64,000 nt of DNA from a virus, in the IMG/VR virus record IMGVR_UViG_3300025009_000051, positions 1 through 64,000 of that record. One strand, written 5' to 3'. The position numbers and the translations under genes were made by a program. The notes beneath the pieces were generated by a model. It searched no databases. It was given only the letters and a program-made list of their open reading frames with translations, and had not been told where the DNA came from. Positions 11,916-64,000 of this stretch are shown piece by piece; the first letter of the stretch is position 1, and the number at the start of each line of letters is the position of its first letter.

Positions 11916-12965
11916 TTAATTTGTAAATGTTTTTCTAAAATGTATAAATTCTCCACTTATTATTCTCGGATCATTCAAAGATAATCTTTTTTTGATGCCA
12001 TCTTTATTTTTGCATAATATAGTACCTTTATTTACAGATACTAATTCTCCAGAAATATATCTTGAATCAGTTTTAAAAATATTAAAAGTATTTCCATCTT
12101 TATCTTTTACTGTGAGTCGTCCTGTGGCAGCGTGTTTCAATTCTCCAGAAATATATCTTGGATCATTAACTAAAACTTGAAAAGTATTTCCATCTTTATC
12201 TTTTACACTTATTTTTCCTTTAGACAATGCTTTAACTTCTTTATTTAAAAATCTTGGATCGTCTGTCTTAATTCTAAAACATTTATTTTTATCATCTACC
12301 ACAAGAACAGTATTTACAAATGGAGATTTCAATTCTCCAGACAAATATTTATCATTATCACATCTTATATAAATATTTTGATTTTTTTCATTTTTAACCA
12401 ATACACCTATAATCAATTCTTTTGTAATTAATCTTAAATCATTTTTATGCACATAAATCTTTTTATCATTTTTATCGAATGCTATTAGCATATTTTTGTG
12501 TATGCTTTCTAATTCTTTATTTTTATCGTTGCACTCTATTCTTGAAATGTTCCCATCTTTATCTCTTACACAATATGTTCCTGTCACAATACCTTTAAAT
12601 TCGCCAGATTCTAATCTAATATCATCGTTATATGCATGAATTTTTTCTCCTTTATTATTTTTATAAGTGTGTTTTCCTTTTTTTCCTTTATTTATTCCAA
12701 CAAATTCTCCAGATAAATATCTCGGATCATTGTTATCTGTTTGAAAGGTATTTCCATCTTTATCTTTCACAACAATTCTATCTTTAAAAATACTGATTAA
12801 TTCACCTGATAAATATCTTGGATCTGTTTTATCTACTTGGAACGTATTACCTTTTTTATCTTTTACTGGAATTTTTCCTTTGGTTATACTAATCAATTCT
12901 CCAGACAAATATCTTGGATCATTGATAGAGACAGAAAAAGTATTTCCTTCTTTATCTCTCACCGG
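11916..12965 (-). repeat. Coding tandem repeat, about 11 copies of 90 bp
   Basis: This DNA encodes the repeated module with core DPRYLSGEL of the GIY-YIG protein. Copies differ in many positions, so this is an old protein-level repeat and not a recent DNA expansion. Confidence 0.7.
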
Positions 12966-13265
12966 TAATAATCCGGTTGTATTAAACCCTCCCCCGTGTA
13001 TGATATTATATGTATCTTCTTGTTTTACAAATTCTTCGTCTACCATTTCTTTTTCTTTCTCTATCATTTCTTCTTTAGTATCAAAATCAAACAAAATTTC
13101 TTTTTTAAAATTTTCTATACCACATTCTTGAATTGCTTCTTTTATTAATCTGCCAGATCCCATATATTCATCATTTATATTACTGGTTGCATGCTGCCCA
13201 ATATAAATTTTACCATTCAAAATATTAGTTATCTTATAAATTAAATAATGTTTTCTTTTTTCCAT
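11916..13265 (-). CDS. GIY-YIG endonuclease with 11 tandem C-terminal repeats
   Basis: 449 residues. The N-terminal about 95 residues are a GIY-YIG nuclease: LIYKITNILNGKIYIGQH holds the two signature strands, EYMGSG... and a conserved Glu follow, and the domain ends in TYNIIHGGGF. From residue 101 to the end are 11 copies of a roughly 30-residue module whose best form is VKDKDGNTFQV-x-DPRYLSGEL followed by a basic KGK turn. Copies 4-7 are the most divergent. Such modules follow GIY-YIG nucleases in phages and probably read DNA along the target. The gene is free-standing, interrupts nothing visible and is most likely a homing endonuclease. Confidence 0.8.
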   Translation of the reverse strand: MEKRKHYLIYKITNILNGKIYIGQHATSNINDEYMGSGRLIKEAIQECGIENFKKEILFDFDTKEEMIEKEKEMVDEEFVKQEDTYNIIHGGGFNTTGLLPVRDKEGNTFSVSINDPRYLSGELISITKGKIPVKDKKGNTFQVDKTDPRYLSGELISIFKDRIVVKDKDGNTFQTDNNDPRYLSGEFVGINKGKKGKHTYKNNKGEKIHAYNDDIRLESGEFKGIVTGTYCVRDKDGNISRIECNDKNKELESIHKNMLIAFDKNDKKIYVHKNDLRLITKELIIGVLVKNEKNQNIYIRCDNDKYLSGELKSPFVNTVLVVDDKNKCFRIKTDDPRFLNKEVKALSKGKISVKDKDGNTFQVLVNDPRYISGELKHAATGRLTVKDKDGNTFNIFKTDSRYISGELVSVNKGTILCKNKDGIKKRLSLNDPRIISGEFIHFRKTFTN

Positions 13266-20322: not shown

Positions 20323-22008
20323 TTATCCGCACAAGCTGGCCCCGCAATCCAAGCATCTAAGGCAACCGTCTGTATAAATTAAATTTGAACTACCACAATT
20401 CTCGCACGTTTGTCCTTTAGCTTCTACTCCATCTTTAACAAATTTTTTCAATATCCTTATAACTCCTTTTTTCCAAGTTGTCATAATAAATTGTTCATCA
20501 TTTTCAAATTTTAAACTTGCTACCAATTTAATTACATATTCCATTGGATGCCGGTGTCGTAACAATGAACTAATTAATTTAGCCATGTTCCAAGCCTCTC
20601 TATCAAATACTCTATTTAATCCTTGCATTATTACTTCATATCCTTGTTTGTCTTTATAAATGAAGTCATACCTACTTCCATGTCCATTATCTTTAATTTT
20701 TTTAATAATGCCTTCTTCTACATAACCTGGTACATTAAAATCATCTAATTTACCAGTAAAAATTTCATATGGATAAGTTTCTTTTTCTGATTCTTTATAT
20801 ACTCCTATAAATCCAATCCATTGTTCTTTATTATTTTGAAACTGTATAACTTTAGCAACTAATTCAGAAGGTCTTCGTTGAGCATTATTTGTAATAAATT
20901 GCTTTAATTCTGGTTTTTCTGATTCTTTATTTATTAATACTCCAGATCTACTTCCGTCTCGATATATGGTAAATCCTTTACAACCTACTTCCCAGGCTTT
21001 TTTATATAATTCATCTACTGTTTCTACTGTTACATCATTAGGAAGATTATGGGTAACGGATAGGCTATGGGAGACATATCGCTGGATTATTCCTTGCATT
21101 TCTACTTTCTTAATCCAATCTATTTCGTTTGCAGTTGCTTTATAGTATGGTGATTTACTAATAATAAAATCTAAAGTTTTTTCATCTATTGATGTTAAAT
21201 CTGGTTTATAATCTATATCGAACCATTTAGTATTTAATTTAAACCAATTTGAATCATACCATTCAACAAATTTAGGATGAAATACATTATACGTTTCCCA
21301 ATAATCTCCGTTTGCATCTGGCTCCGACGCTCTTGTATCTTTATCGTTTGGATTAATTTTTCTTTTTCTCTTATAAGATATATTAAATGCTGGTTCTAAT
21401 CCTGAAGTTGTTTGTGTCATGAGGGAAACGGAACCTCCAGGAGCTATCGTAGAGATACTAATATTTCTTCTACCATAATATGAATGTAGAGTTTTTAGTT
21501 CTTCATCTAAGCCAAATAAGAAATTCATAAATTCATCATCTTCCTCTAATTCAGGAGTATAATCAGGAAATGCTCCTCTTTCTTTTGCTAATATACAACT
21601 TTGTTTATATTCATTTATTGCTTTTATTTCAAATACTTTTTTTGTAAATTCATTTGCTTCGTCTGTTCCATATCTCAGGTTCATCGCTGCTATCATATCT
21701 CCTAATGCGGTAATTCCTAACCCAGTTCTTCTTGCGTTGAGAGCGTTAGATTTTATTTTTTTCCACAAATTAATTTCTGTTTGTTTTACTATGTCATCCT
21801 CAGGGTCATCTTTTATTTTCTTTAAAATTGAATTTATTTTTTCAATTTCTAAATCTATCACATCATCTAATATTTTTTGTGCATATCCAACATGCAATTT
21901 AAATAAATCGAAATCAAATTTAGAATCATTTTGAAATTTATTAATTACATAATTAAATAAATTTATTGATAATAGAATGCATTCAGAAAAAGGAGACATG
22001 CCAATTTC
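20323..22008 (-). CDS. nrdJ: Class II ribonucleotide reductase, C-terminal half (exon 2)
   Basis: From the intron junction this exon encodes EIGMSPFSECILLSINLFNYV and 540 more residues. The family's barrel core follows: RRTGLGITALGDMI, then RNISISTIAPGGSVS and TTSGLEPAFN, and later SHSLSVTHNLP. It ends in a zinc-ribbon tail (CENCGSSN... CLRCLDCGASLCG), typical of B12-dependent NrdJ, which makes dNTP precursors from NTPs. The catalytic Cys and the Gly after it come from exon 1 at 22262-22342. If unspliced, translation could start only at the ATG at 21999, giving a protein without that Cys. The N-terminal half is a separate gene at 24433-25830; joining them appears to need RNA and protein splicing. 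Confidence 0.8.
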   Translation of the reverse strand, partial: EIGMSPFSECILLSINLFNYVINKFQNDSKFDFDLFKLHVGYAQKILDDVIDLEIEKINSILKKIKDDPEDDIVKQTEINLWKKIKSNALNARRTGLGITALGDMIAAMNLRYGTDEANEFTKKVFEIKAINEYKQSCILAKERGAFPDYTPELEEDDEFMNFLFGLDEELKTLHSYYGRRNISISTIAPGGSVSLMTQTTSGLEPAFNISYKRKRKINPNDKDTRASEPDANGDYWETYNVFHPKFVEWYDSNWFKLNTKWFDIDYKPDLTSIDEKTLDFIISKSPYYKATANEIDWIKKVEMQGIIQRYVSHSLSVTHNLPNDVTVETVDELYKKAWEVGCKGFTIYRDGSRSGVLINKESEKPELKQFITNNAQRRPSELVAKVIQFQNNKEQWIGFIGVYKESEKETYPYEIFTGKLDDFNVPGYVEEGIIKKIKDNGHGSRYDFIYKDKQGYEVIMQGLNRVFDREAWNMAKLISSLLRHRHPMEYVIKLVASLKFENDEQFIMTTWKKGVIRILKKFVKDGVEAKGQTCENCGSSNLIYTDGCLRCLDCGASLCG

Positions 22009-22261
22009 CTTTTTTTGTTATAAGTATTATTTTAAAAATACTATCTTAAATTTCTTTAAGTGTCGGACTATATCTTCATTTAAAATGTTAAATGCCGGGC
22101 GCTCGTGTTTGGTTTATTGTTAAAACTACTCACCAATTAGTCTCTGAACCTTATTTGATACTATTATGTTTATTCTCAAATTTTGGCTGCTGATTGCCTT
22201 GTATAAAAATATTTAGGTTTCCAGCAATTCACCCGATGTTTTAATTGAGGCAAAATTATCT
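22009..22261 (-). ncRNA. Group I intron (253 nt, no ORF) in the RNR gene
   Basis: On the minus strand the conserved core appears in order: P-like GAATTGCTGGAAACC, Q-like AATCAGCAGCC, R GGTTCAGAGACTAA and S GAAGATATAGTCCG. A P9 hairpin CTTAAA-GAAA-TTTAAG follows. The 5' exon end UUGUGGU pairs with GCCUCAA inside the intron (one U-U mismatch), giving the U-G wobble at the splice site. The last intron base is G. Splicing joins codons for Cys-Gly to Glu-Ile-Gly, rebuilding the NrdJ active-site context. The intron has no internal ORF; the nuclease at 22302-23579 lies just outside its 5' side. Confidence 0.85.
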
Positions 22262-22342
22262 ACCACAATCTACTGATAAAATAGATTTATCAATATAATT
22301 TTTAATTTTCTGCTTTGAGCGTGTTATTTTTTTTATTACCAT
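22262..22342 (-). other. Candidate exon 1 of the RNR C-terminal half (intein C-end plus Cys-Gly)
   Basis: An ATG at 22342 opens a 27-codon frame ending ...NYIDKSILSVDCG at the intron border, in a different frame from the overlapping nuclease gene. Cys-Gly is the start of the C-extein; the residues before it would be the intein C-terminus. SVD-Cys replaces the usual HN-Cys, so splicing activity is uncertain. No clear ribosome binding site is visible before the ATG. The P1 pairing of the intron fixes the exon end well; the exon start is a guess. Confidence 0.45.
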
Positions 22343-23579
22343 AATAGTATTGTTTAAATTGGTTAAAATTATTAAAATATTTATTTATTGTATCTTCACT
22401 AATTCCTAAATTTTTTGGAATTATTTTTTGAGATTTTAATTTCTTAATTTCTATCAAAAATTCCTGCATTTCAATATTTGGATAGTGAGTAAAAATTTGC
22501 GTGCTGGCGTTCACTAATTTATTTTTAAAAACTTTTTTCACCCTTTCTGGAGACATTGTTTTTCTTTTTGTTTTTCCTGTTTGGAGATTATATTTTAAAG
22601 TGCAACCTGAAGAACAAGTTTTTTTATCATTATTTTGTCTATCTTTAAATTCTTTACCGCACATAATACAATTTTTATTTATTATTGGATTTATATTGTT
22701 ATATTTTTCTTGATTCTTTCTACTTCGTTCTTTAGCCTTTTCAGATAATTTTTTAATAATTTCTGGATTATTTTTATAAGTTTCTTTTATTGCGTCGCCA
22801 ATTTTTTTCCTATATAGCGGATCCTCACATCTTTTTTTAGCCTTTTCTCCAATTAATTTTTTTGTCTGTTCACTGCATTTTATACCATACCTTGGATTAT
22901 TTTCTCCTCTGGTATCGATTTGGATTGTAGCAATATTATTCTTCCATTCATTTACATTTTCTTTTATATTTGGATATTGCTTTAAAATATATGCATAACT
23001 TGTTAATATTTCAAATTCGATGTTTAAAGTTTTAAAATATTTTTTAAATATGGTATATTTTTTTAGCAACTCTTTATTTTTTATTTTTCCCGCTTTTATT
23101 TCGTAAATTTTTATTAATTCATTATCTTTATAAATAAAAATGTCCGGTTTATAATTTAATTTATTAACATGATAAATTTCACATTCTGTTTTAATTTTAT
23201 ATTTGGGAGAAGTATATATGTTTAAATAAAAATTTAATAAATGAATATATTCTGCTTGGCTTCTACAAAAATGCTTATTATTGTGTATTGTCAAATAGCC
23301 GGAATATCCTCTACTGTGATTATTTTTATTTATATTTTCATAAATTTTTCTTTGCTTTTCAATTTCAATTATATATTCGCTTTCAATTAAATTTGTCTTC
23401 AATATCCAATACGATTTTGATAATTTTGTATTGGAGGAATTAATAAATTTTATAATTATCTTTGCTTCATTGTCTTCTATTTTATCAAAATTAAAATATT
23501 CTAAAGTCTTTGTTATATGTTTGTCAAATCCAGTTCTTACAGTCAAATTAGATAATTGTTCAAGTTCAATTTTTGTCAT
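22302..23579 (-). CDS. PD-(D/E)XK homing endonuclease with NUMOD3 and zinc motifs
   Basis: 425 residues. KPDIFIYKDNELIKIYEIKAGK (about residues 157-178) has the PD...E-x-K metal site of the PD-(D/E)XK fold. It is followed by a NUMOD3-like DNA-binding motif (GENNPRYGIKCSEQTKKLIGE) and a zinc module (CIMCGKEF... CSSGC). A helical C-terminus follows. It is lodged between the two halves of the RNR gene, next to the ORF-less group I intron and the intein site. This is the position expected of a nuclease that spreads the whole interruption into empty RNR alleles. A late-type element precedes it. Its 3' end overlaps the candidate exon 1. Confidence 0.7.
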   Translation of the reverse strand: MTKIELEQLSNLTVRTGFDKHITKTLEYFNFDKIEDNEAKIIIKFINSSNTKLSKSYWILKTNLIESEYIIEIEKQRKIYENINKNNHSRGYSGYLTIHNNKHFCRSQAEYIHLLNFYLNIYTSPKYKIKTECEIYHVNKLNYKPDIFIYKDNELIKIYEIKAGKIKNKELLKKYTIFKKYFKTLNIEFEILTSYAYILKQYPNIKENVNEWKNNIATIQIDTRGENNPRYGIKCSEQTKKLIGEKAKKRCEDPLYRKKIGDAIKETYKNNPEIIKKLSEKAKERSRKNQEKYNNINPIINKNCIMCGKEFKDRQNNDKKTCSSGCTLKYNLQTGKTKRKTMSPERVKKVFKNKLVNASTQIFTHYPNIEMQEFLIEIKKLKSQKIIPKNLGISEDTINKYFNNFNQFKQYYYGNKKNNTLKAEN

Positions 23580-23603
23580 ATATATTTATTTAAAATTATT
23601 ATA

Positions 23604-23613
23604 AATAAATATA
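23604..23613 (-). promoter_or_regulatory. Late-promoter-like element for the nuclease gene
   Basis: TATATTTATT on the minus strand, 24 nt before the ATG at 23579. Confidence 0.4.
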
Positions 23614-23627
23614 TACAAAATACCTTT

Positions 23628-23681
23628 TTACAGAAATGAAGCTTGTTTTACTTCAGGTTTAATTATTTTTGTAATTTTCAT
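23628..23681 (-). other. 17-codon reading frame, possible intein C-piece remnant
   Basis: MKITKIIKPEVKQASFL starts in the stop codon of the ART-like gene (ATGA overlap). Its start resembles the first residues of known split-intein C-halves (short basic M-x-K-K-I-x-K-I text), but there is no Asn-Cys end. It may be the left remnant of the C-intein displaced by the nuclease gene. This is weakly supported. Confidence 0.2.
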
Positions 23682-24436
23682 AATTCTATAATTTCAATGA
23701 TTTTTATATTTTTTGGGTGTATATTTTCTAAGGTATAATATCCATTTGAAAAATTGGGATCTTTAAATAATCTATCTATCCCATCAGTATTTATTTCATA
23801 TATCACAAATTTATTTTCTTTAACTTTTAGATATTTTTGTATTGGGCGCCCGAGTAATTTTGCATCTTCTATTGTCTTGGAAAAATAAATTCTATCTGGA
23901 TGAGTAGATATTTTATTTTTTGCCTTTGGAGTTAAACCATATTTTTGAATTTTATCTTTGTTATAATAAGGAGAAATATGATATACTTTATTAGGTATAT
24001 CTACTTCTAAATCATATTTAGCTTCTAACACAATTTGAATATAAGAATAGGTATCGACTAATTCTAATATTTGATTTACAATTAATGCGGACCATTTTTT
24101 TCTTTGTACTTTATCTGTAAGGTATATTATTTTTGCGGGAAACCATCCAAGATTATTTATTGTAGATAATATAAGATTAAAATTAGATAAAATAAATTTA
24201 ACATTTTTTTTATTGATTAATAATTCTATAGTATTGTTTTTTTTAGAACAAGATAAATAATTATAAGTAGAATTTAAAATTCTAATACTGGAAGATATAT
24301 CAGTTGTATGAATTAATCCTTCATATAATTTTTGTACTTTATAATCATATTCCATTTCAGATATTAAACTCTCATCTAAGCAGGATCGTTTAAATCTTTT
24401 CAGCCATGATTTAGTAATATTGGTTTGATTTATCAT
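23678..24436 (-). CDS. ART-fold-like protein, copy B, between the RNR halves
   Basis: 252 residues. Shared blocks with 19336-20025 are KLYEGLIHTTDISSSIRIL, INNLGWFPAK, VLEAKYDLEV, KVYHISPYYNKDKIQKYGLTPKAK with HPDRIYF, and LFKDPNFSNGYYTLENIHP. The H of YHIS and the Tyr of RIYF match the His and Tyr of KptA/DarT-type ART folds; a catalytic Glu is not certain. The start overlaps the stop of the RNR N-terminal gene (ATGA), so the two are translated together. Its place inside the fractured RNR suggests it arrived, or was captured, with the interruption. Confidence 0.5.
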   Translation of the reverse strand: MINQTNITKSWLKRFKRSCLDESLISEMEYDYKVQKLYEGLIHTTDISSSIRILNSTYNYLSCSKKNNTIELLINKKNVKFILSNFNLILSTINNLGWFPAKIIYLTDKVQRKKWSALIVNQILELVDTYSYIQIVLEAKYDLEVDIPNKVYHISPYYNKDKIQKYGLTPKAKNKISTHPDRIYFSKTIEDAKLLGRPIQKYLKVKENKFVIYEINTDGIDRLFKDPNFSNGYYTLENIHPKNIKIIEIIEL

Positions 24437-24957
24437 ATTAATTCGTGTTTTTCTGTTAATTCATACGCAAATAATTGCCCTTTATCTGTGTTCACTATAT
24501 CAAAATATTTAAATCTAATATTATCATTTATAATAATATCTTCATCTACAATAAATTCTTCTTTATTTAAAATACTAAAAAAATTATAATTGGGAGATGC
24601 AGTTAAATCATATACATCTTCTTTCATATCTGTTTCTATACAATTTAATACTTCTACCAATCCTTCTCCAGATATAATAAATTTACCTATTATATTGTCA
24701 ATTACTACTTCTTCAAAATTTTCATTATAAAATTTATGTTTTGAATTAATTAACATAAATTCACCATTAGAAAATTCAATTTTATACAATTCAGCTTGTT
24801 CTTCTGTTAATAATACATCTTGTAAATCTGAATTATATAATTTACCTTCTTTATCTCTTGTTATTATTTTATAATTGATTTTTTTAAAAGTTTCTAATAA
24901 ATTTTTAATCTTAATCCATCCTAGATTAGTTAATACCAATGTATCTCCAATTACGCA
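24433..24957 (-). mobile_element. N-terminal intein segment in RNR (174 residues)
   Basis: This segment begins at residue 292, just after TTSTNP: CVIGDTLVLTNLGWIKIKNLL is intein block A. NSKHKFYNENFEEV resembles block B, and EDVYDLTASPNYNFFSI is a good block F. No block G (HN before Cys) follows; the frame runs on for 45 residues to a stop. It is therefore either a split intein whose last strand is supplied in trans or an intein fragment left after an insertion. Confidence 0.65.
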
Positions 24958-25830
24958 AGGATTTGTGCTTGTGGTTTTATATTGAGGATAACTATCAGAA
25001 GGACTATAATTGACAAGTTTATCCCAAAACAATATTCCTGGTTCTGCACTCTTCCAATTATTTTCTATTAATTTATTCCAAATTTTTCTTGCATCTACTT
25101 CTTTAGTATAAATCGGATTATCTGAATCTATAGGATATTGCTGAGTATAAGTAGTACCATTTATAACCGCATTCATAAATTCATTATCGATTTTAACCGA
25201 AATGTTAGCACCGGTTATTTTATTTGTATCTAATTTTGCATTTATAAAATCTTCTGCATCCATATGTTTAATATGAATTGAAAGCATAAGAGCTCCTCTT
25301 CTTCCATCTTGTGCAACTTCTCTTGTACTATTAGAATATCTTTCCATAAAAGGAACCACTCCTGTAGATGTTAAAGCTGAATTTTTAACAGGTGTACCTT
25401 TTGGTCGTATGTGAGACAAATCATGTCCAACTCCACCTCTTCGTTTCATCAATTGCACTTGTTCTTGATCTGTCATTAATAATCCACCATAACTATCAGC
25501 TTGATTACCTATAACAAAACAATTGCTTAAACTTGTATATTGATTATTATTTCCAACTCCAGACATTGAACCTCCTGCAGGTACTATGTATTTGAATTCT
25601 TTTAATAGTTGATATATTAATTCTTCTGATAATGGATTTTCATATTTTGATTCTATCCTATGTAATTCTTTAGCTAATCTTTTATGCATGTCATCTGGGT
25701 TAGTTTCGAATAAATTTCCTAAACTATCTTTCAAACAATATTTGTTAATCCAGACATTTGTTGCGAGTTCGTCGCCTTTAAAATATTCTAAAGTTTTATT
25801 AAATACTTCTTCTCGAGTATATGATTTCAT
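24433..25830 (-). CDS. nrdJ: Class II ribonucleotide reductase, N-terminal half fused to an intein segment
   Basis: 465 residues. Residues 1-291 are the N-extein: VPAGGSMSGVGNNNQYTSLSNCFVI, then KRRGGVGHDLSHIRPKG and EVAQDGRRGALMLSI, features of the NrdJ N-terminal barrel with the redox Cys104. The extein stops at TTSTNP, exactly before the radical-bearing Cys of the Asn-Pro-Cys-Gly-Glu motif. Residues 292-465 are intein-like. The C-terminal half is encoded about 2.4 kb downstream on the same strand. Without protein splicing this half has no catalytic Cys. It overlaps the ART-like gene by ATGA and follows the DnaB gene by 5 nt. Confidence 0.8.
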   Translation of the reverse strand: MKSYTREEVFNKTLEYFKGDELATNVWINKYCLKDSLGNLFETNPDDMHKRLAKELHRIESKYENPLSEELIYQLLKEFKYIVPAGGSMSGVGNNNQYTSLSNCFVIGNQADSYGGLLMTDQEQVQLMKRRGGVGHDLSHIRPKGTPVKNSALTSTGVVPFMERYSNSTREVAQDGRRGALMLSIHIKHMDAEDFINAKLDTNKITGANISVKIDNEFMNAVINGTTYTQQYPIDSDNPIYTKEVDARKIWNKLIENNWKSAEPGILFWDKLVNYSPSDSYPQYKTTSTNPCVIGDTLVLTNLGWIKIKNLLETFKKINYKIITRDKEGKLYNSDLQDVLLTEEQAELYKIEFSNGEFMLINSKHKFYNENFEEVVIDNIIGKFIISGEGLVEVLNCIETDMKEDVYDLTASPNYNFFSILNKEEFIVDEDIIINDNIRFKYFDIVNTDKGQLFAYELTEKHELI

Positions 25831-28311: not shown

Positions 28312-29733
28312 TTAATCTTCTTCTGCGTAAGTATCTTCTAAAAATCCAGATTCATCTACTCTCTCGAATATGATGTTTTCTTCACTTAATTCTGAAGTTT
28401 TGTATTGCATAATTAATGTATCCGCCATAGCATTGTAGATTTGTTCTTTTAGATATGGATTTGTAACTGTAATATATTCTTCAAAAGTTTTTCTTTGAAA
28501 TTTATGTTCTAAAGGTAAATCATCTTTATCAGATTTTTCTAAATCTATCCATGTGTACCAAGCTCCACCTTTTTTAATTAATCCATATAAATCCAAGGTA
28601 TCTAACCAATTTTCATATTCATTAATACCTGAATCATAATAGATATTAAATTCAGTTTTTCTTAAATTTGGACCACATCTGTTTTTCTTTACCTGTGCTA
28701 AAGTAGTAATACCAATGACTTGTTCTACTCCATTTACTTTACCTTTTATTTGTCCTGCAGGTTTTAATCTTATTCTTACAGAAGCATGAAATCCAATAGC
28801 TTGACCTCCTGAAGTGGTGTTGTGATTTAACCAACCATTTGCATAATAATTATGAATGTCTTTAATATCAAAATCTACAACATTCATTTTTTCAGATACT
28901 TTCGTAAATTTAGAAGAAAAATCTTTAGCGTGCACCCAATCCGTTCCGTCCCAAACTCTATGATTTCCTGAGCATTTTAAATTTCCATCTGTATAATGTT
29001 CTAAAACAGATTCTTTAATGATAAAAGATTTTATAGGTTTATATACATCTTCACCTGTTTTTAAATCTTGACCTAAAATCTCACAATTTAATTCTGGATC
29101 TATATCAAATATTTCAGGATTTTCAAAATCATCATTATTAGCAAATCTATCACTGAAATCTTTTATTGATATTTCTTCTTCAGTATATTTTTTTGAACGA
29201 TATCCTTTATCATTTGATTTCCAATCTGATTTATATCTAATTTTGATATTAGTAGAATATGGATCAACACAATAAGGATCTCCAAAAGAAGTATTATGAG
29301 AAACAATATCATTAGATAAATATGAATGATCCCCATCTAATTCAAAATCTACAATTGGTATTATATAATTTGTAGCATCTACACAAAAAGGAATCCATAA
29401 ATTATTATTCTTTAATAAAAAATTTCTATAATTATTATTTTCACATAAAAATCGAGTTTCTAAAAACCCTTCAGACAAATCATTTATATTTCTACATAAA
29501 ATTTTATGTTCGTCTGCAACTTCTAAAGATTTATTTTCATATGTAATAATATACATTTTTGTATCTGGCTTTCTAATTAAATTTATAACTCTATTCCATT
29601 TTCCGTCTTGAGTTAAAATTTCGTAATTTTTTGAGGATACATCATAAGGTTTGTTAATTTCCATTTTGGTATAATCATACCCCAATTCAGCAAAAAAATC
29701 TTTAATATTTATTTCTAATTCTGTGCTATACAT
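28312..29733 (-). CDS. recA: RecA/UvsX C-terminal half with split-intein C-piece and a second intein
   Basis: 473 residues in five parts. Residues 1-147 are a C-intein (VIPI-type strands, block F IVDFELDGDHSYL, end NDIVSHN). 148-154 are the extein TSFGDPY. 155-305 are a complete mini-intein (CVDPYSTNIKIRYKSD to IHNYYANGWLNHN) with no nuclease domain. From 306 TTSGGQAIGFHASVRIRL continues the RecA core. An acidic C-terminal tail (ESGFLEDTYAEED) follows. Joined to the N-half the core reads RVKLG-TSFGDPY-TTSGG, as in bacterial RecA around loop L2. Mature RecA thus needs one trans and one cis protein splicing event. The start ATG lies inside the end of the nuclease gene. Confidence 0.85.
   Translation of the reverse strand: MYSTELEINIKDFFAELGYDYTKMEINKPYDVSSKNYEILTQDGKWNRVINLIRKPDTKMYIITYENKSLEVADEHKILCRNINDLSEGFLETRFLCENNNYRNFLLKNNNLWIPFCVDATNYIIPIVDFELDGDHSYLSNDIVSHNTSFGDPYCVDPYSTNIKIRYKSDWKSNDKGYRSKKYTEEEISIKDFSDRFANNDDFENPEIFDIDPELNCEILGQDLKTGEDVYKPIKSFIIKESVLEHYTDGNLKCSGNHRVWDGTDWVHAKDFSSKFTKVSEKMNVVDFDIKDIHNYYANGWLNHNTTSGGQAIGFHASVRIRLKPAGQIKGKVNGVEQVIGITTLAQVKKNRCGPNLRKTEFNIYYDSGINEYENWLDTLDLYGLIKKGGAWYTWIDLEKSDKDDLPLEHKFQRKTFEEYITVTNPYLKEQIYNAMADTLIMQYKTSELSEENIIFERVDESGFLEDTYAEED
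28819..29271 (-). mobile_element. Contiguous mini-intein 2 in RecA (151 residues)
   Basis: C155 to N305 of the C-terminal half: block A CVDPYSTNIKIRYKSD, block B CSGNHRVWDGTDW, block F VVDFDIKDIHNYYA and block G NGWLNHN followed by Thr. No nuclease domain. Its block A resembles that of intein 1, so the two inteins look like relatives. Confidence 0.85.
29293..29733 (-). mobile_element. C-terminal piece of split intein 1 in RecA (147 residues)
   Basis: It starts MYSTELEINIKDFFAEL, which aligns with the second part of block A (EEISIKDF) in intein 2. VADEHKILCRN is the block B His region, and NDIVSHN is the C-terminal His-Asn before Thr148. The matching N-piece is the 16-residue tail of 30735-31442. 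Confidence 0.8.
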
Positions 29734-30680
29734 AATATTTCTTTTATTTGTTTTTTAAATTTATTTGTTTCGTTTATAATGTCGTGTTCCCATATTTCAA
29801 AATAATGAATATCTTGACCGTATTTAGTGTATATCTGTGCTTTCTTTCTTTTGTCCCTATTTATATTGCTCCTTTGTACTCCTTGTAAATTATTGTAATT
29901 ATAAATTTCTGGATTTGCATGCCAATAATCTCCTTGTACTTCGATAAAAATATTTTCCCTAATCCTGAAATCTACAGAATACCAATAATCTTTATTATTA
30001 TAGTCTTGCACACATACCATTTCATTATATCTATATTGAATATTGTTTTCTTCTAAAATATTTTGAATTTTTAATTCCGGTCTTGTTATTCCGCCCGCAA
30101 ATTTCCAACCCTCTCGTTTAAATGTCTTTCCAAAATATTTTTTAAACCAAGGGGCATAAGGAACACTAATTACTTCTTTAAATAAAGATTTAAATTCATT
30201 TTTTGTATATTTTTCAATATTATTTTCTAACCAATCCAAAGTTTCTTTTCTAAATAACATATTTGAATTAAAATATGCTTTTACTCTAATTTTATTTGCT
30301 TTTAATATTTCTGCATCTGTTAAGGTATTAGAATAAGAGTTAATATGCCATTCCCTTATATTTAAATATTCTGATATTAATCTATATGAATAGTAAGGTT
30401 TTTTTAACATTTCAAATATAATTTTTTTATCTTCTTCTGAAATTTTAAATTTGCGTGATTCTGATATTTTCTTTTTTGTTTCTTCACTTGTAAAATGCCC
30501 CATTAAACTTTTCTGTCGTTTTAAAACAGATTCTGGCGATTTTGGTACTCCCGGCTTACATCTATTAAAATGTTTAAGTTTGCAAGTTTCAGAACAAAAA
30601 TATCTTGTTTGTTTTTTTGATATTATAAAAATATTTTCATTGGGTATTTCATTTTTACAAGGAAAAAAATTGCATTTCAT
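29715..30680 (-). CDS. Vsr-like (EDxHD-type) homing endonuclease between the RecA halves
   Basis: 321 residues. There is an N-terminal zinc motif (CKNEIP... FCSETCKLKHF) and a NUMOD3-like SEETKKKISESRKF segment, followed by a helix-turn-helix-like region. The C-terminal nuclease carries YSVDFRIRENIFIEVQGDYWHANP (acidic residues and His) and GQDIHYFEIWEHDI, the pattern of the Vsr-related homing nucleases known from fractured genes with split inteins. It lies exactly at the split of RecA and overlaps the C-terminal half by 19 nt. A late-type element is 11 nt upstream of its ATG. It most likely cuts uninterrupted recA alleles and spreads the arrangement. Confidence 0.8.
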   Translation of the reverse strand: MKCNFFPCKNEIPNENIFIISKKQTRYFCSETCKLKHFNRCKPGVPKSPESVLKRQKSLMGHFTSEETKKKISESRKFKISEEDKKIIFEMLKKPYYSYRLISEYLNIREWHINSYSNTLTDAEILKANKIRVKAYFNSNMLFRKETLDWLENNIEKYTKNEFKSLFKEVISVPYAPWFKKYFGKTFKREGWKFAGGITRPELKIQNILEENNIQYRYNEMVCVQDYNNKDYWYSVDFRIRENIFIEVQGDYWHANPEIYNYNNLQGVQRSNINRDKRKKAQIYTKYGQDIHYFEIWEHDIINETNKFKKQIKEILCIAQN

Positions 30681-30691
30681 AAGTTTTTTAT

Positions 30692-30701
30692 AATAAATAT
30701 A
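30692..30701 (-). promoter_or_regulatory. Late-promoter-like element for the nuclease gene
   Basis: TATATTTATT on the minus strand, 11 nt before the ATG at 30680; it would let the nuclease and the RecA C-half be expressed late, apart from the N-half. Confidence 0.4.
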
Positions 30702-30734
30702 AAAGAACTTAAAAAATAAAGTTTATTTTAGTTG

Positions 30735-30785
30735 TTACGTTATTTTCTTCCGAATAATAATATTAGTTGTTTCTGGATTTACACA
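30735..30785 (-). mobile_element. N-terminal piece of split intein 1 (16 residues plus stop)
   Basis: CVNPETTNIIIRKKIT. Residues C, V, P, T, N, I and R-x-K match the start of intein 2 (CVDPYSTNIKIRYK), which supports it being a genuine intein start and not random read-through. Confidence 0.75.
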
Positions 30786-31442
30786 ACCAAGCTTAACCCG
30801 TAATTGTTGGTTTATAATTAATATAGCATTTGTCTTACCAATTAAACTTGTAATTTTTCTCATTGCTTTAGAATTGATAATAGCTTTATCAGTGTTCCAT
30901 CCTTCTTTCTTATAATCTCCTTCATATTCATTTAAAGCTACTGCACCAGATTGAGAATCAAATACAATTGTTACTGGAACATCTTTCTTTTCAGATTGAA
31001 TTTTAATTAAAATATCTTCAATAGTTTGATAAATATCTTCTAATATATTCATTTCAACATAAACCATTTTTGATAAATCGACTCCAATAGCTTCCAAGAA
31101 TGTTGTATCCGATGCATGCTCTGTGTCAATGTAAACTCCAATTCCACCGAGTTTTTGAGTATTTTTTATTGCGTGAGCAGCTAATAGAGACTTCCCCGAC
31201 GCCTCCAAACCTGATAACTCGATAATCTTCCCGCGGGGCCATCCTCCTTCCCTTTTATTTGAAATAGCAATGTCAAGTGTCGGACTACCTGTAGAAATCC
31301 AACCTTTAACTTCTTCTTGTGCATTCAAAAATAATGCTACATCTTTATCTTTAAATTTGCTATTAATATTTTGTTTAATAATTGATGCTAAATCAAGATT
31401 ACTTTCTTTTAAAGGTTCTTCACCCTTTGATTTTTTTGCCAT
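30735..31442 (-). CDS. recA: RecA/UvsX N-terminal half ending in a 16-residue N-intein
   Basis: 235 residues. IIELSGLEASGKSLLAAHA is Walker A, VPVTIVFDSQSGAVAL Walker B, and ILIINQQLRVKLG the strand before loop L2. At residue 220 the RecA sequence stops and CVNPETTNIIIRKKIT begins, followed at once by TAA. This is intein block A only, much shorter than most natural N-inteins. The partner is the C-terminal half at 28312-29733. The protein catalyses strand exchange in phage recombination and repair, but this half alone lacks the C-terminal core strands. It is separated from the SSB gene by a terminator. Confidence 0.85.
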   Translation of the reverse strand: MAKKSKGEEPLKESNLDLASIIKQNINSKFKDKDVALFLNAQEEVKGWISTGSPTLDIAISNKREGGWPRGKIIELSGLEASGKSLLAAHAIKNTQKLGGIGVYIDTEHASDTTFLEAIGVDLSKMVYVEMNILEDIYQTIEDILIKIQSEKKDVPVTIVFDSQSGAVALNEYEGDYKKEGWNTDKAIINSKAMRKITSLIGKTNAILIINQQLRVKLGCVNPETTNIIIRKKIT

Positions 31443-31516: not shown

Positions 31517-32521
31517 CTAACCAAACAATTCTTTGAATTTATCGGTTGCTGCACTAACAGCGTCTGTATTCTTTGGTTCTTCTTTTGGAGCTTCTACTTT
31601 TTGTTCAACCTTTGTTTCAGATTGAGTAGACGTCGTTGCAGGAGCATTGTATTTAATTTCTTCTTTCTTATCTGTCTTTCTATTATCTTCTTTTTCTTTC
31701 TTATTCAAATAAATATCTAAATCTCTTTGCAATTCTTCAAAAGTAGGTTTTCTATAAATATCATAAATATCAATTTGATTATGTAGAATTTCATAAGCCA
31801 AATCTTTATCAGTTGTTAAAACTGAAGATTTATTTTCAAATTTAACATTTGTTTCTCCAAAAGTTTTAGTACTCCACGGACCTTTATAGTTAGGATATTT
31901 TTTCATAGTTTGTTCCTTATTCTTTTCTGAAGGAGTATAAGTAACTTCTAAATCATAACCTTTCTCAGGATCTGTAAAATCTACATCTTCACCAGGTTTA
32001 ATTACATTAAAATCTAATAGATTCTTTTGAAGTGTTAAAGCAGCTTTCACAATTTCGGTAAAAATTCCTTCACTGTGAGTCCACCATTTTAATTCTTTTT
32101 CATTTTCTCTATCTACCATGATACAATTATATCTTGGAATTGCTTGTTCTTGAGCAGCATTTTGTTTTCCTCCTAAGATTTCGGTACCAAGAAAATACAT
32201 TTTTTTGCCTTCTTCCGGTTGTGGGTTTGTTTTATTGAAAGTTAATTCGTTACCAGCTTTAATTTGTTGAACTGCAAAATCTACAATTGGATCTTGTTCG
32301 TTAAAATTCTTTAAGCTTAGTTTCCCGCCCGGACAAACTGCATAGTGCATGTTTAATTTAAGAAATGGATCTTGAGGAGTGTCCTTTAAAGGAATAATTC
32401 TAATTCGATTTAATCCGGGTTTAGGTGCCCATAATCTTGGATCCCTTTCAAATGATTTGCCTTCGTTTTTACTCTGAAGGTCTTCGAGTTTTTTTCGTAA
32501 ATTGTCTAAATTTAATCCCAT
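31517..32521 (-). CDS. Single-stranded DNA-binding protein, gp32-like
   Basis: 334 residues. SFERDPRLWAPKPGLNRIRIIPL is the characteristic gp32-type start of the OB core. The central part has YNCIMVDRENEKELKWW and GYDLEVTYTPSEKNKEQT. The last 55 residues are Lys/Glu/Ala-rich linker followed by an acidic-hydrophobic tip (AATDKFKELFG), as used by gp32 to recruit replication partners. The protein coats ssDNA at forks and in recombination together with RecA and the helicase. It has its own terminator. Confidence 0.75.
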   Translation of the reverse strand: MGLNLDNLRKKLEDLQSKNEGKSFERDPRLWAPKPGLNRIRIIPLKDTPQDPFLKLNMHYAVCPGGKLSLKNFNEQDPIVDFAVQQIKAGNELTFNKTNPQPEEGKKMYFLGTEILGGKQNAAQEQAIPRYNCIMVDRENEKELKWWTHSEGIFTEIVKAALTLQKNLLDFNVIKPGEDVDFTDPEKGYDLEVTYTPSEKNKEQTMKKYPNYKGPWSTKTFGETNVKFENKSSVLTTDKDLAYEILHNQIDIYDIYRKPTFEELQRDLDIYLNKKEKEDNRKTDKKEEIKYNAPATTSTQSETKVEQKVEAPKEEPKNTDAVSAATDKFKELFG

Positions 32522-61428: not shown

Positions 61429-64000
61429 TTACAAAGATTTTTTAACTGTATCTATCTTATGAATAATTTCTTCTTCAGTCAATATATTCTTTTCGTTTAA
61501 TAAATTAGTATTCTTCATTCTTTTAATCATTTCTTTTCTATATTGTTTTTTTCTTTCTACCAATCTTTTATTTGATTTTTCTTTATTTTTATCAAACTGT
61601 TCAAAAGTAGCTTTAATTAATCTTTGTTTTTTAGTATCTAAATCTTCTGCAGTATCTGATTTCTTTAATTTAGATTCTGACCAAGTATCTTCATCAGTTT
61701 TAGTATTAGAAGTTTCTTTAGTAACAGCTGGATCATTACCTTCTTCAGCAATTTGATTATATCTAAACATTCTTTTCAAATCTTCTGGAATATCTTTTTC
61801 TTGCCATTTTTTATAATCGTCTTCTGTCATATTAAATAACTCGGTATAAATCCATTCCATTGGAACTAATCTTGCTTCTATAAAACTCTTAGCTAATTCT
61901 AATTTACTTGTCCATAATTCAACTCTTTCTTGTTCTGCTAATTTAGAAGAAGTAGTTAATTTTAGTTCAAATTGAGTTAATTGTTCATCTGTAAATCCTT
62001 GAGAATATAAGTGTATTAAAGCAAGTTTTGTTAATTCAGTTTCTACTACTCTTTGAACTCGTTCTATTGATCTACTAAATCTAACATCTTCACTCGCGAG
62101 ATTCGATTTCGCATTCATGGATTCTTCGAAAGTTAGGAACGATTTTGGAATCTTTAAACTTGCTAATAAATTATTCATCTCATATTGAATATCTTCTAAT
62201 CCTGTGAATTCCATTCCTGGTAATGTATCAAATTCAGTTCCGCTTTTATCTCCTCGAACGGGTAAAAAGAAATCCTCCAAGCTTGAATTTTTAACAAATA
62301 TACCGTTTCTCGATTCTCCTTCATGAGTAATAGTAGCAAAATTATGATATTCGGCTACCGTCATACAATATACATCTTCTTTTTTTGTTAATAATTCAAT
62401 TTTTTTAATTTTATGATTTATTTTTGATGTAGAAACCTTTTTCATGAATTCATCTACATTTATATATCCTCTTTCTCGAATTGCTCTTTTAATTGTATGC
62501 ATCATAAATTCTTTAGGTTTTTTTCTACCTGCGTTTAATTTCAAATAATATTCATATAATCCATTAATATTATTCATCTCATCACATATTTTTCTTATTG
62601 TCATATTTTCATTTTCTGAAACGATTATCTTAATAGTATTAAATAAATAATCATCAAATTTATCTTTCATTGCATTTGTTACTTTTTCTTTATAATTTTT
62701 ATCTTCCCATCTTCGTTTATTTTCTTGTTTCATAAAATTCCTTTTCTTTAATCTTTCTTCCTTAGACATAGGATTTAATTTTAAAGTTAATTTTATTTTA
62801 TTTTTTATTTCGTTTGCTTTTTCAATTCCAAATACTTCTTCGTAAGATTTTCCCTTTAATTTATTTTCGAATTTTGATTTTTTTCCTTTTTTACTATCGC
62901 TTAATTTTTTTATTGTTTCCTCAGTTCTTATATAGGGTATCATATTTTCTTTCATCCATTTTGAATGTTCCGGTCGTTTTTTATCTTGAAAAGTTGCAAC
63001 CCTACCATTTTTAAATTGTTCAGAAACAACACCAGATATTTTTTCTCCTAATTTTTTTAATCTGATATCTGTTTCTTTAGTCTTGCCTTTGCTCCAAATT
63101 TTTAATTCTCCTGAACTAAACATTTCTTTTAATGTTGCTTTTCTTTTCTCATTAATAATATTTAATTCTTCTTGAGATTTATTATTCCACATCGTATTAT
63201 TTCTATGATATCTAATATGTTCTGAAGATGTCATAGAACAATCTAAATTATCTGGAGAATTGTTTAATTTTTTAAAATCCTTATGATGAACTACATTTTT
63301 GTTTGCATTATACTCATTTAGATTTAAAGCAGATGCAACTAATCTATGAGTATATTCATATTTTTCTGTTTTTGGATTAAAAATTAATTCATAATCTGCA
63401 ATGTTTTTTTGAGTTGATAAAGTAGTATAAAACGGCATTATAGATTCTTCTTCTTTTAAATCTTTAGCCATTTTATAATCTCCATTTCTTAACATTACTG
63501 GATGTGATGGCTCAACATCTAAATAACTACTATCATCTAAAGTTATTCTTATTATATCTGCTTCTTTAATAGTTAATCCGCACCATTCAACTTTTCCGGG
63601 TACAATTTTATTATTATCATTTTTATCTATAGAATATACATAATTTATTTTTCCTTGTTCATATTCTTCTGATAATTCTTTTATTGTTATTTCTCTTCCA
63701 TCTAATAAAGGAATTATTGAATACCATGCAATTGGCATAAGGTTAAATCTCATATTGTATTCACCCGTTTCCGGATCCATATAAGGAACCTTTTTCATAT
63801 TATTTATTACTAAATTCATATGAGCGGCTACTTCATTAGGTGGAATATTTCCTACATCAACTTTAATTACTCTTCTTTCAGGTGCTCTCATTATTCTTGC
63901 TAATAACATTGCATCTTCTAATAAAGTAATTCTTTTCCAAGTTCTTCTACCATTTTCTAAAATACTCTTACCATAAGGAATAAGATTAAAATCAGATAAT
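61429..64000 (-). CDS. Portal protein (gp20-like) with intein, N-terminus cut by the window edge
   Basis: The frame is open through the right edge (NGRRTWKRITLLEDAMLLA upstream of the first ATG at 63907-63909), so the true N-terminus is outside. Portal text: PERRVIKVDVGNIPPNEVAA and PYMDPETGEYNMRFN, then after the intein SSLEDFFLPVRGDKSGTEFD, TLPGMEF, LKIPKSFLTFEESMNAKSNL and FSRSIERVQRVVETELTKLA. It forms the dodecameric DNA entry ring. A Lys/Glu-rich C-terminal tail follows. The intein occupies about residues 61-541 counted from the first ATG. Splicing is needed for a normal portal. Confidence 0.85.
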   Translation of the reverse strand, partial: LSDFNLIPYGKSILENGRRTWKRITLLEDAMLLARIMRAPERRVIKVDVGNIPPNEVAAHMNLVINNMKKVPYMDPETGEYNMRFNLMPIAWYSIIPLLDGREITIKELSEEYEQGKINYVYSIDKNDNNKIVPGKVEWCGLTIKEADIIRITLDDSSYLDVEPSHPVMLRNGDYKMAKDLKEEESIMPFYTTLSTQKNIADYELIFNPKTEKYEYTHRLVASALNLNEYNANKNVVHHKDFKKLNNSPDNLDCSMTSSEHIRYHRNNTMWNNKSQEELNIINEKRKATLKEMFSSGELKIWSKGKTKETDIRLKKLGEKISGVVSEQFKNGRVATFQDKKRPEHSKWMKENMIPYIRTEETIKKLSDSKKGKKSKFENKLKGKSYEEVFGIEKANEIKNKIKLTLKLNPMSKEERLKKRNFMKQENKRRWEDKNYKEKVTNAMKDKFDDYLFNTIKIIVSENENMTIRKICDEMNNINGLYEYYLKLNAGRKKPKEFMMHTIKRAIRERGYINVDEFMKKVSTSKINHKIKKIELLTKKEDVYCMTVAEYHNFATITHEGESRNGIFVKNSSLEDFFLPVRGDKSGTEFDTLPGMEFTGLEDIQYEMNNLLASLKIPKSFLTFEESMNAKSNLASEDVRFSRSIERVQRVVETELTKLALIHLYSQGFTDEQLTQFELKLTTSSKLAEQERVELWTSKLELAKSFIEARLVPMEWIYTELFNMTEDDYKKWQEKDIPEDLKRMFRYNQIAEEGNDPAVTKETSNTKTDEDTWSESKLKKSDTAEDLDTKKQRLIKATFEQFDKNKEKSNKRLVERKKQYRKEMIKRMKNTNLLNEKNILTEEEIIHKIDTVKKSL
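62287..63729 (-). mobile_element. Intein with HNH nuclease in the portal gene (about 481 residues)
   Basis: It begins near AWYSIIPLLDGREITIKELS; block B is DVEPSHPVMLRNG, block F EDVYCMTVAEYHNFAT and block G NGIFVKN before Ser. The first residue is not Cys or Ser (Ala is the best fit), the block F Asp is Cys, and the penultimate residue is Lys. The insert has an HNH nuclease (NVVHHKDFKKLNNSPDNLDC, then SSEHIRYHRNN) and NUMOD-like helices. It should home into empty portal genes. Confidence 0.75.

What the first reader, a model, noticed from the sequence alone, without database searches (positions are those of the whole stretch)
28312..29733. Two related inteins only seven residues apart in RecA
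Seen: the C-half holds C-intein, TSFGDPY, a complete 151-residue mini-intein, then TTSGGQAIGFH. The two block A texts (CVNPETTNIIIRKK and CVDPYSTNIKIRYK) look homologous, and IN-type IKDFF / ISIKDFS follow in both. Both end before Thr. Known: inteins sit at conserved loops, and RecA loop L2 is such a site. Inference: one element duplicated into an adjacent site, one copy splitting while the other stayed whole. The 7-residue extein island is then handled by two splicing events, which may be ordered.
Basis: partly seen in the sequence, partly recalled or inferred. Interest (0 to 1): 0.85.

Follow-up and report, generated by a model that had tools for sequence, protein, structure and literature searches.

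The report
Two stacked inteins in phage RecA
A virus of bacteria carries its DNA-repair recombinase gene in two pieces that should be rejoined by one split self-splicing protein element, while a second, whole one sits only seven residues away; relatives show that these are two separately travelling elements stacked in one loop of the protein, not a local copy of each other.

Summary
A 183.7-kb phage contig encodes UvsX/RecA in two genes (28312-31442, minus strand). The N-half ends in a 16-residue N-intein. An EDxHD/Vsr-like endonuclease gene follows. The C-half holds the 147-residue C-intein, the island TSFGDPY, a whole 151-residue mini-intein, then TTSGG. Key catalytic residues are present. 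Endonucleases group by site too. The sister phage L002 has intein 2 but not intein 1, so intein 1 most likely arrived later. Three phages carry both; in each exactly one intein is split, with one endonuclease: intein 1 in the window and L004, intein 2 in L005. At site 1 the +1 residue is Thr in 4 of 4 occupied genes and 0 of 131 empty ones, as splicing requires. Best reading: two site-specific homing cassettes stacked in one loop; one splices in cis, the split one joins the halves in trans. New variant of a known kind; splicing is untested.

The parts
30786..31442 (-). UvsX/RecA N-extein (219 aa, Walker A ... QQLRVKLG)
   Evidence: Pfam RecA 6e-33, PHROG_97 UvsX-like 2e-44
30738..30785 (-). 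N-intein of split intein 1 (16 aa, CVNPETTNIIIRKKIT); stop codon 30735-30737
   Evidence: sequence; homologous N-intein in L004, contiguous in L005
29715..30680 (-). Free-standing EDxHD/Vsr-like homing endonuclease between the halves (321 aa; ...VDF..IEVQGDYWHANPE...); overlaps the C-half start by 19 nt
   Evidence: core profile of 14 such ORFs hits Vsr 1odg E 1.4e-4 and I-Bth0305I 3r3p E 1.6e-3; site-1 lineage with L004
29293..29733 (-). C-intein of split intein 1 (147 aa, block B His, block F Asp, ..SHN)
29272..29292 (-). Extein island TSFGDPY between the two inteins (part of RecA loop L2); Thr is the +1 nucleophile of intein 1
   Evidence: +1 Thr in 4/4 occupied, 0/131 empty site 1
28819..29271 (-). 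Whole mini-intein 2 (151 aa, CVDPYST...LNHN)
   Evidence: predicted HINT fold, residues 155-305 of the C-half, VIA Z about 15 to solved inteins incl. VidaL 6vgv
28312..28818 (-). UvsX/RecA C-extein (TTSGGQAIGFH...) with stop
   Evidence: Pfam RecA 8e-10

Best explanation
Loop L2 of phage UvsX is a hotspot entered by separately mobile intein cassettes, each tied to its own site and its own EDxHD endonuclease lineage. Here two are stacked. Intein 2 (site 2, GDPY^TTSGG) was resident. Intein 1 (site 1, KLG^TSFGDPY) came in later by homing from a related phage, bringing its endonuclease and its own +1 Thr codon with flanking codons. The endonuclease gene lies at the S1 split point of intein 1 and divides uvsX into two genes. 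Working model: intein 2 excises itself in cis within the C-half; the 16-residue N-intein on the N-half then docks on the 147-residue C-intein and trans-splicing joins KLG to TSFGDPYTTSGG, giving full UvsX with Thr in place of the usual Val or Ala at one L2 position. Shown: anatomy, conserved catalytic residues, site-wise phylogeny, reciprocal split states, +1 Thr rule. Inferred: that both splice, the cis-before-trans order, the direction of arrival, and homing by this endonuclease.
For: Trees group inteins by site and endonucleases by site. Window-pair sisterhood rejected. The extein tree places the window beside L002 (support 100) and intein 2 follows it (95/75), while L002 has an empty site 1. 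Site 1 needs 4 changes on the extein tree, and the three tandem phages are not one clade (AU 0.002). C1, block B His, block F Asp and terminal His-Asn are invariant in 36 of 36 inteins. +1 Thr in 4/4 occupied, 0/131 empty. Same three-gene order in L004; reverse split in L005. Intein 2 model is HINT-like. The longest exact DNA match between the window N-half and L005 (24 nt) spans the site-1 splice junction.
Against: No experiment shows splicing. Site-1 clade support is modest (82/52) because L135 is distant. Block B Thr is Ala in the window's intein 1. The predicted model of a contiguous intein 1 (from L005) has low confidence in its N part. Only three tandem phages are known, so 'exactly one is split' may be chance. 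Loss of intein 1 in L002 rather than gain in the window is possible.
Confidence: 0.8

Rival explanations
1. Ancient duplication: a site-2 intein (or the reverse) moved to the neighbouring site once, long ago, founding the site-1 family, which then spread by homing.
For: Site-1 and site-2 profiles align end to end (hhalign score 99, E 1.7e-16), better than either with the UvsX P-loop inteins (72 and 65). One clade of both is not rejected (AU 0.587). Same split point in both families.
Against: The joining clade is unsupported and the outgroup inteins are few with long branches. The endonuclease lineages do not pair up specifically: s1+s2 together is neither rejected nor favoured (AU 0.452).
Confidence: 0.25
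2. One reading: recent in-place duplication in this phage lineage, after which one copy split.
For: Adjacent, related, similar block A.
Against: Rejected by the tree (AU p 8.6e-49). Intein 2 is 54% identical to L002's and intein 1 is 44% identical to L004's, but they are about 36% identical to each other in a gapped global alignment.
Confidence: 0.01
3. No splicing at site 1: the two halves form a two-chain UvsX, as reported for the split NrdA of phage Aeh1 without a split intein, and the intein pieces are relics.
For: Phages do use split proteins that assemble without splicing (PMC2988022). Block B Thr is lost in the window.
Against: All other catalytic residues are invariant, and +1 Thr appears only with the intein. 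The halves divide inside DNA-binding loop L2.
Confidence: 0.07
4. Assembly or chimera artefact.
For: Metagenomic contig.
Against: The same gene order in the divergent contig L004.
Confidence: 0.01

Closest known systems
Atypically split S1 inteins, above all VidaL (16-aa IntN; PDB 6vgv)
   Same: Split right after strand beta-2 with a 15-17 aa N-intein; Cys1 (PMC13014065). Intein 2 model matches 6vgv with Z 15.1.
   Different: No sequence-profile match to 6vgv from either site family. Here a second intein sits 7 residues away.
Fractured genes with split intein and a new endonuclease family (Dassa et al. 2009, cited in PMC13014065; paper itself not readable here)
   Same: N-half, free-standing endonuclease, C-half (arrangement from my own knowledge of that paper).
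   Different: Short-N split rather than canonical; two inteins in one loop; reciprocal split states among relatives.
Neighbouring inteins in one gene, e.g. haloarchaeal MCM-a/MCM-d (PMC10643990), M. smegmatis DnaBi1/DnaBi2 (PMC6195587)
   Same: Two inteins in one essential DNA enzyme, each site with its own family; in T. kodakarensis MCM and M. smegmatis DnaB one of the two lacks an endonuclease (PMC10643990).
   Different: In those cases the endonucleases are domains inside the inteins; here the sites are 21 bp apart in one loop and the endonuclease is a free-standing gene in the split.
I-Bth0305I (EDxHD intron endonuclease, 3r3p)
   Same: Same nuclease family by profile. Related endonucleases sit beside a group I intron at a third L2 site in L128 and L135.
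   Different: Intron-borne, not in a split intein.

Membership tests
Class 1 inteins (HINT) | Cys/Ser at position 1 | tested here: met
   C1 in both, 36/36 in the family
Class 1 inteins (HINT) | Block B His, block F Asp, C-terminal His-Asn, +1 Cys/Ser/Thr | tested here: met
   +1 Thr for both
Class 1 inteins (HINT) | HINT fold, intein 2 | tested here: met
   model residues 155-305, pLDDT mostly 80-95, Z 15 to solved inteins
Class 1 inteins (HINT) | HINT fold, intein 1 | tested here: inconclusive
   model of contiguous L005 homologue matches inteins E about 1e-4 but TM 0.3-0.4 and low pLDDT at its N end
Class 1 inteins (HINT) | Excision and ligation in fact occur | not testable with these tools
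   needs protein work
Atypically (S1) split inteins | N-intein of about 15-37 residues encoded apart | tested here: met
   16 aa, separate ORF; range from PMC13014065
Atypically (S1) split inteins | Sequence kinship with VidaL | tested here: inconclusive
   6vgv not matched by sequence profiles; matched by fold
EDxHD homing endonucleases | Vsr-like nuclease core with conserved D, E, D, H | tested here: met
   invariant D28 E38 D42 H45 in 14 ORFs; Vsr and 3r3p matched
EDxHD homing endonucleases | Cuts uvsX and drives homing | not testable with these tools
   indirect only: site-wise lineages
   AU p 8.6e-49

The most novel reading that the evidence does not exclude
The stacked pair behaves as one compound mobile element with a single engine. 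Because the sites are 21 bp apart, two active endonucleases would cut too close together, so only one intein keeps a split with an endonuclease while the other fuses into a cis mini-intein and hitch-hikes. Which of the two carries the engine, and hence the order of splicing, switches between lineages.
Probability: 0.2. Interest if true: 0.8.

Novelty: new variant of a known kind. Interest (0 to 1): 0.6.

Why it matters
It is a natural series (no intein, site 1 only, site 2 only, both with either one split) in a single protein loop, so one can test how selfish protein elements stack, interfere and gain or lose endonucleases. It also offers natural cis-plus-trans splicing around a 7-residue segment, and two related short-N split inteins that may be orthogonal, which is useful for protein engineering. 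It bears on the open question of whether neighbouring inteins co-home (PMC10643990).

Tried and rejected
Recent duplication: rejected by the tree. Mimicry of RecA 'NPETT' by the intein start 'CVNPETT': this is ordinary block A (C-V-x-P/G-x-T), also seen at site 2 in L126 and L128. 39-nt identical run with L003 inside intein 2: plausibly a conserved peptide plus AT-rich codon choice, not pursued. Named isolates: neither intein 1 nor the site-2 family found in 50,697 phage records. Bacterial and archaeal genomes: the intein-1 query found no relative; the later junction query returned 24 recA-like loci, in which my context scan picked up no site-1 intein. Rfam at gathering threshold gave nothing for five loci; a laxer search over another set found group I introns. 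Original papers on VidaL and fractured genes were not held; my recollection that a UvsX split intein from Lake Vida was reported is memory only.

Full report
OBSERVATION. On the minus strand the order is: single-strand binding protein (31517-32521), UvsX N-half (30735-31442), endonuclease ORF (29715-30680), UvsX C-half (28312-29733), RNase H-like exonuclease, gp41-like helicase. The missing N-part of intein 1 is only 16 residues, at the end of the N-half gene. Local alignment of intein 1 with intein 2 scores far above shuffles (85 against 33.9 +/- 6.2, 0 of 500). The record is a 183.7-kb virus contig.

RELATIVES. Targeted scans of IMG/VR gave a rich series (parsed). L002: uvsX in one piece, site 1 empty, whole intein 2. 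L003: the same plus a P-loop intein. L004: same three-gene arrangement as the window. L005: intein 1 whole, followed by TSFGDPY and a 17-residue N-intein 2, then another endonuclease ORF, then the C-half with C-intein 2. L135: intein 1 only (split, no endonuclease in the gap; TMYGDPTTTPGG). Of 32 site-2 inteins 24 are split at the same point, mostly with an endonuclease between the halves, and 8 are whole. Many uvsX genes have neither.

ORIGIN. A maximum-likelihood tree of 43 inteins groups them by site (site 2: 94/98; site 1: 82/52). Holding the window's two inteins together costs 62 log units, AU p 8.6e-49. The extein tree joins window and L002 with full support, and intein 2 follows it (95/75); L002 lacks intein 1. 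Presence of intein 1 needs 4 changes on the extein tree, and the tandem trio is not one clade (AU 0.002), which fits repeated transfer or loss. Twenty-five endonucleases group by location: site-1 gap, site-2 gap, intron at a third site, elsewhere. So each site has its own intein-endonuclease cassette. Whether the two cassettes share an old ancestor is open: profiles are somewhat nearer to each other than to P-loop inteins, but the clade is unsupported.

IS INTEIN 1 A WORKING ELEMENT? C1, block B His, block F Asp, penultimate His and last Asn are invariant in all 36 site-1 and site-2 inteins. At site 1 the residue after the junction is Val, Ala or rarely Ile, Asn, Gln in all 131 distinct empty genes, never Thr, Ser or Cys; it is Thr in all four occupied genes (window, L004, L005, L135). 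An intein needs Cys, Ser or Thr there, so this is the mark of a splicing element, and it predicts a Thr scar in mature UvsX. The counts are not corrected for kinship, but the four fall in separate extein lineages. A 24-nt run identical to L005 spans KLG|CVNPE, the longest match in the N-half, while sister L002 differs there; this suggests flanking codons came along, but is not proof.

SPLIT STATE. At site 2, split and whole swap at least 5 times on the tree (3 forced by well-supported branches). In the three tandem phages exactly one intein is split and exactly one endonuclease lies in the gap; the window's genome shows no second endonuclease with this motif. With n = 3 this may be chance. It does match the finding that two active neighbouring homing endonucleases hinder homing (PMC10643990), and a target near 60 bp reported for I-Bth0305I (PMC3943268) would, if shared by these enzymes, span both sites.

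MECHANISM. Intein 2 lies whole in the C-half and its fold is confidently predicted (Z about 15 to solved inteins, incl. VidaL). It can excise in cis at once. The 16-residue N-intein must find the 147-residue C-intein in trans. I therefore infer cis first, trans second here, and the opposite intein in each role in L005. Splicing, order and homing are untested.

NOVELTY. Short-N split inteins, fractured genes with EDxHD endonucleases, and neighbouring inteins are each known. What I did not find described in the papers I could read is two inteins seven residues apart, each with its own endonuclease lineage, with reciprocal split states in relatives, in a loop that in other phages also bears a group I intron. 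I call it a new variant of a known kind.

Noticed in passing
window 20323-25830 (-): NrdA is also in two genes: the N-half (24433-25830) ends in an intein-like stretch (CVIGDTLVLT...) followed by a non-NrdA tail, and the C-half (20323-21999) starts MSPFSEC with no visible C-intein; 22302-23579 between is weakly HNH-like. How NrdA is made whole is unclear.
   Followed up: partly
window 61429-63909 (-): The gp20-like portal gene carries a large intein (Pfam Intein_splicing 8e-16) with an HNH-like endonuclease region.
   Followed up: partly
L126 3184-3506; L135 1424-1870; L128 6568-6859: Group I introns right after TTxGG in uvsX, a third L2 insertion site; RF00028 79.2, 41.9 and 34.7 bits (gathering 50). 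In L128 and L135 an EDxHD endonuclease ORF lies beside it.
   Followed up: partly
L003, L138 (whole); L098, L118 (split): A further UvsX intein in the Walker A motif (GLEA^SGKS), split after about 13 residues in L098 and L118.
   Followed up: partly
L004 5165-8616: The gp41 helicase has a P-loop intein and a second, canonically split intein with another ORF in its gap.
   Followed up: no
L005 6697-6699: In-frame TAG near the C-terminus of the UvsX C-half, with the conserved C-terminal residues continuing in frame; truncation, read-through or sequencing error.
   Followed up: no
window about 29100-29160 (-), L002, L003: FSDRFxNNDDFENPEIFDI inside intein 2 is nearly invariant in these three phages although the inteins are only about 50% identical; reason unknown.
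   Followed up: partly
window 11916-13265 (-): 449-aa protein with a weak SegE-like GIY-YIG domain, another candidate mobile endonuclease.
   Followed up: no
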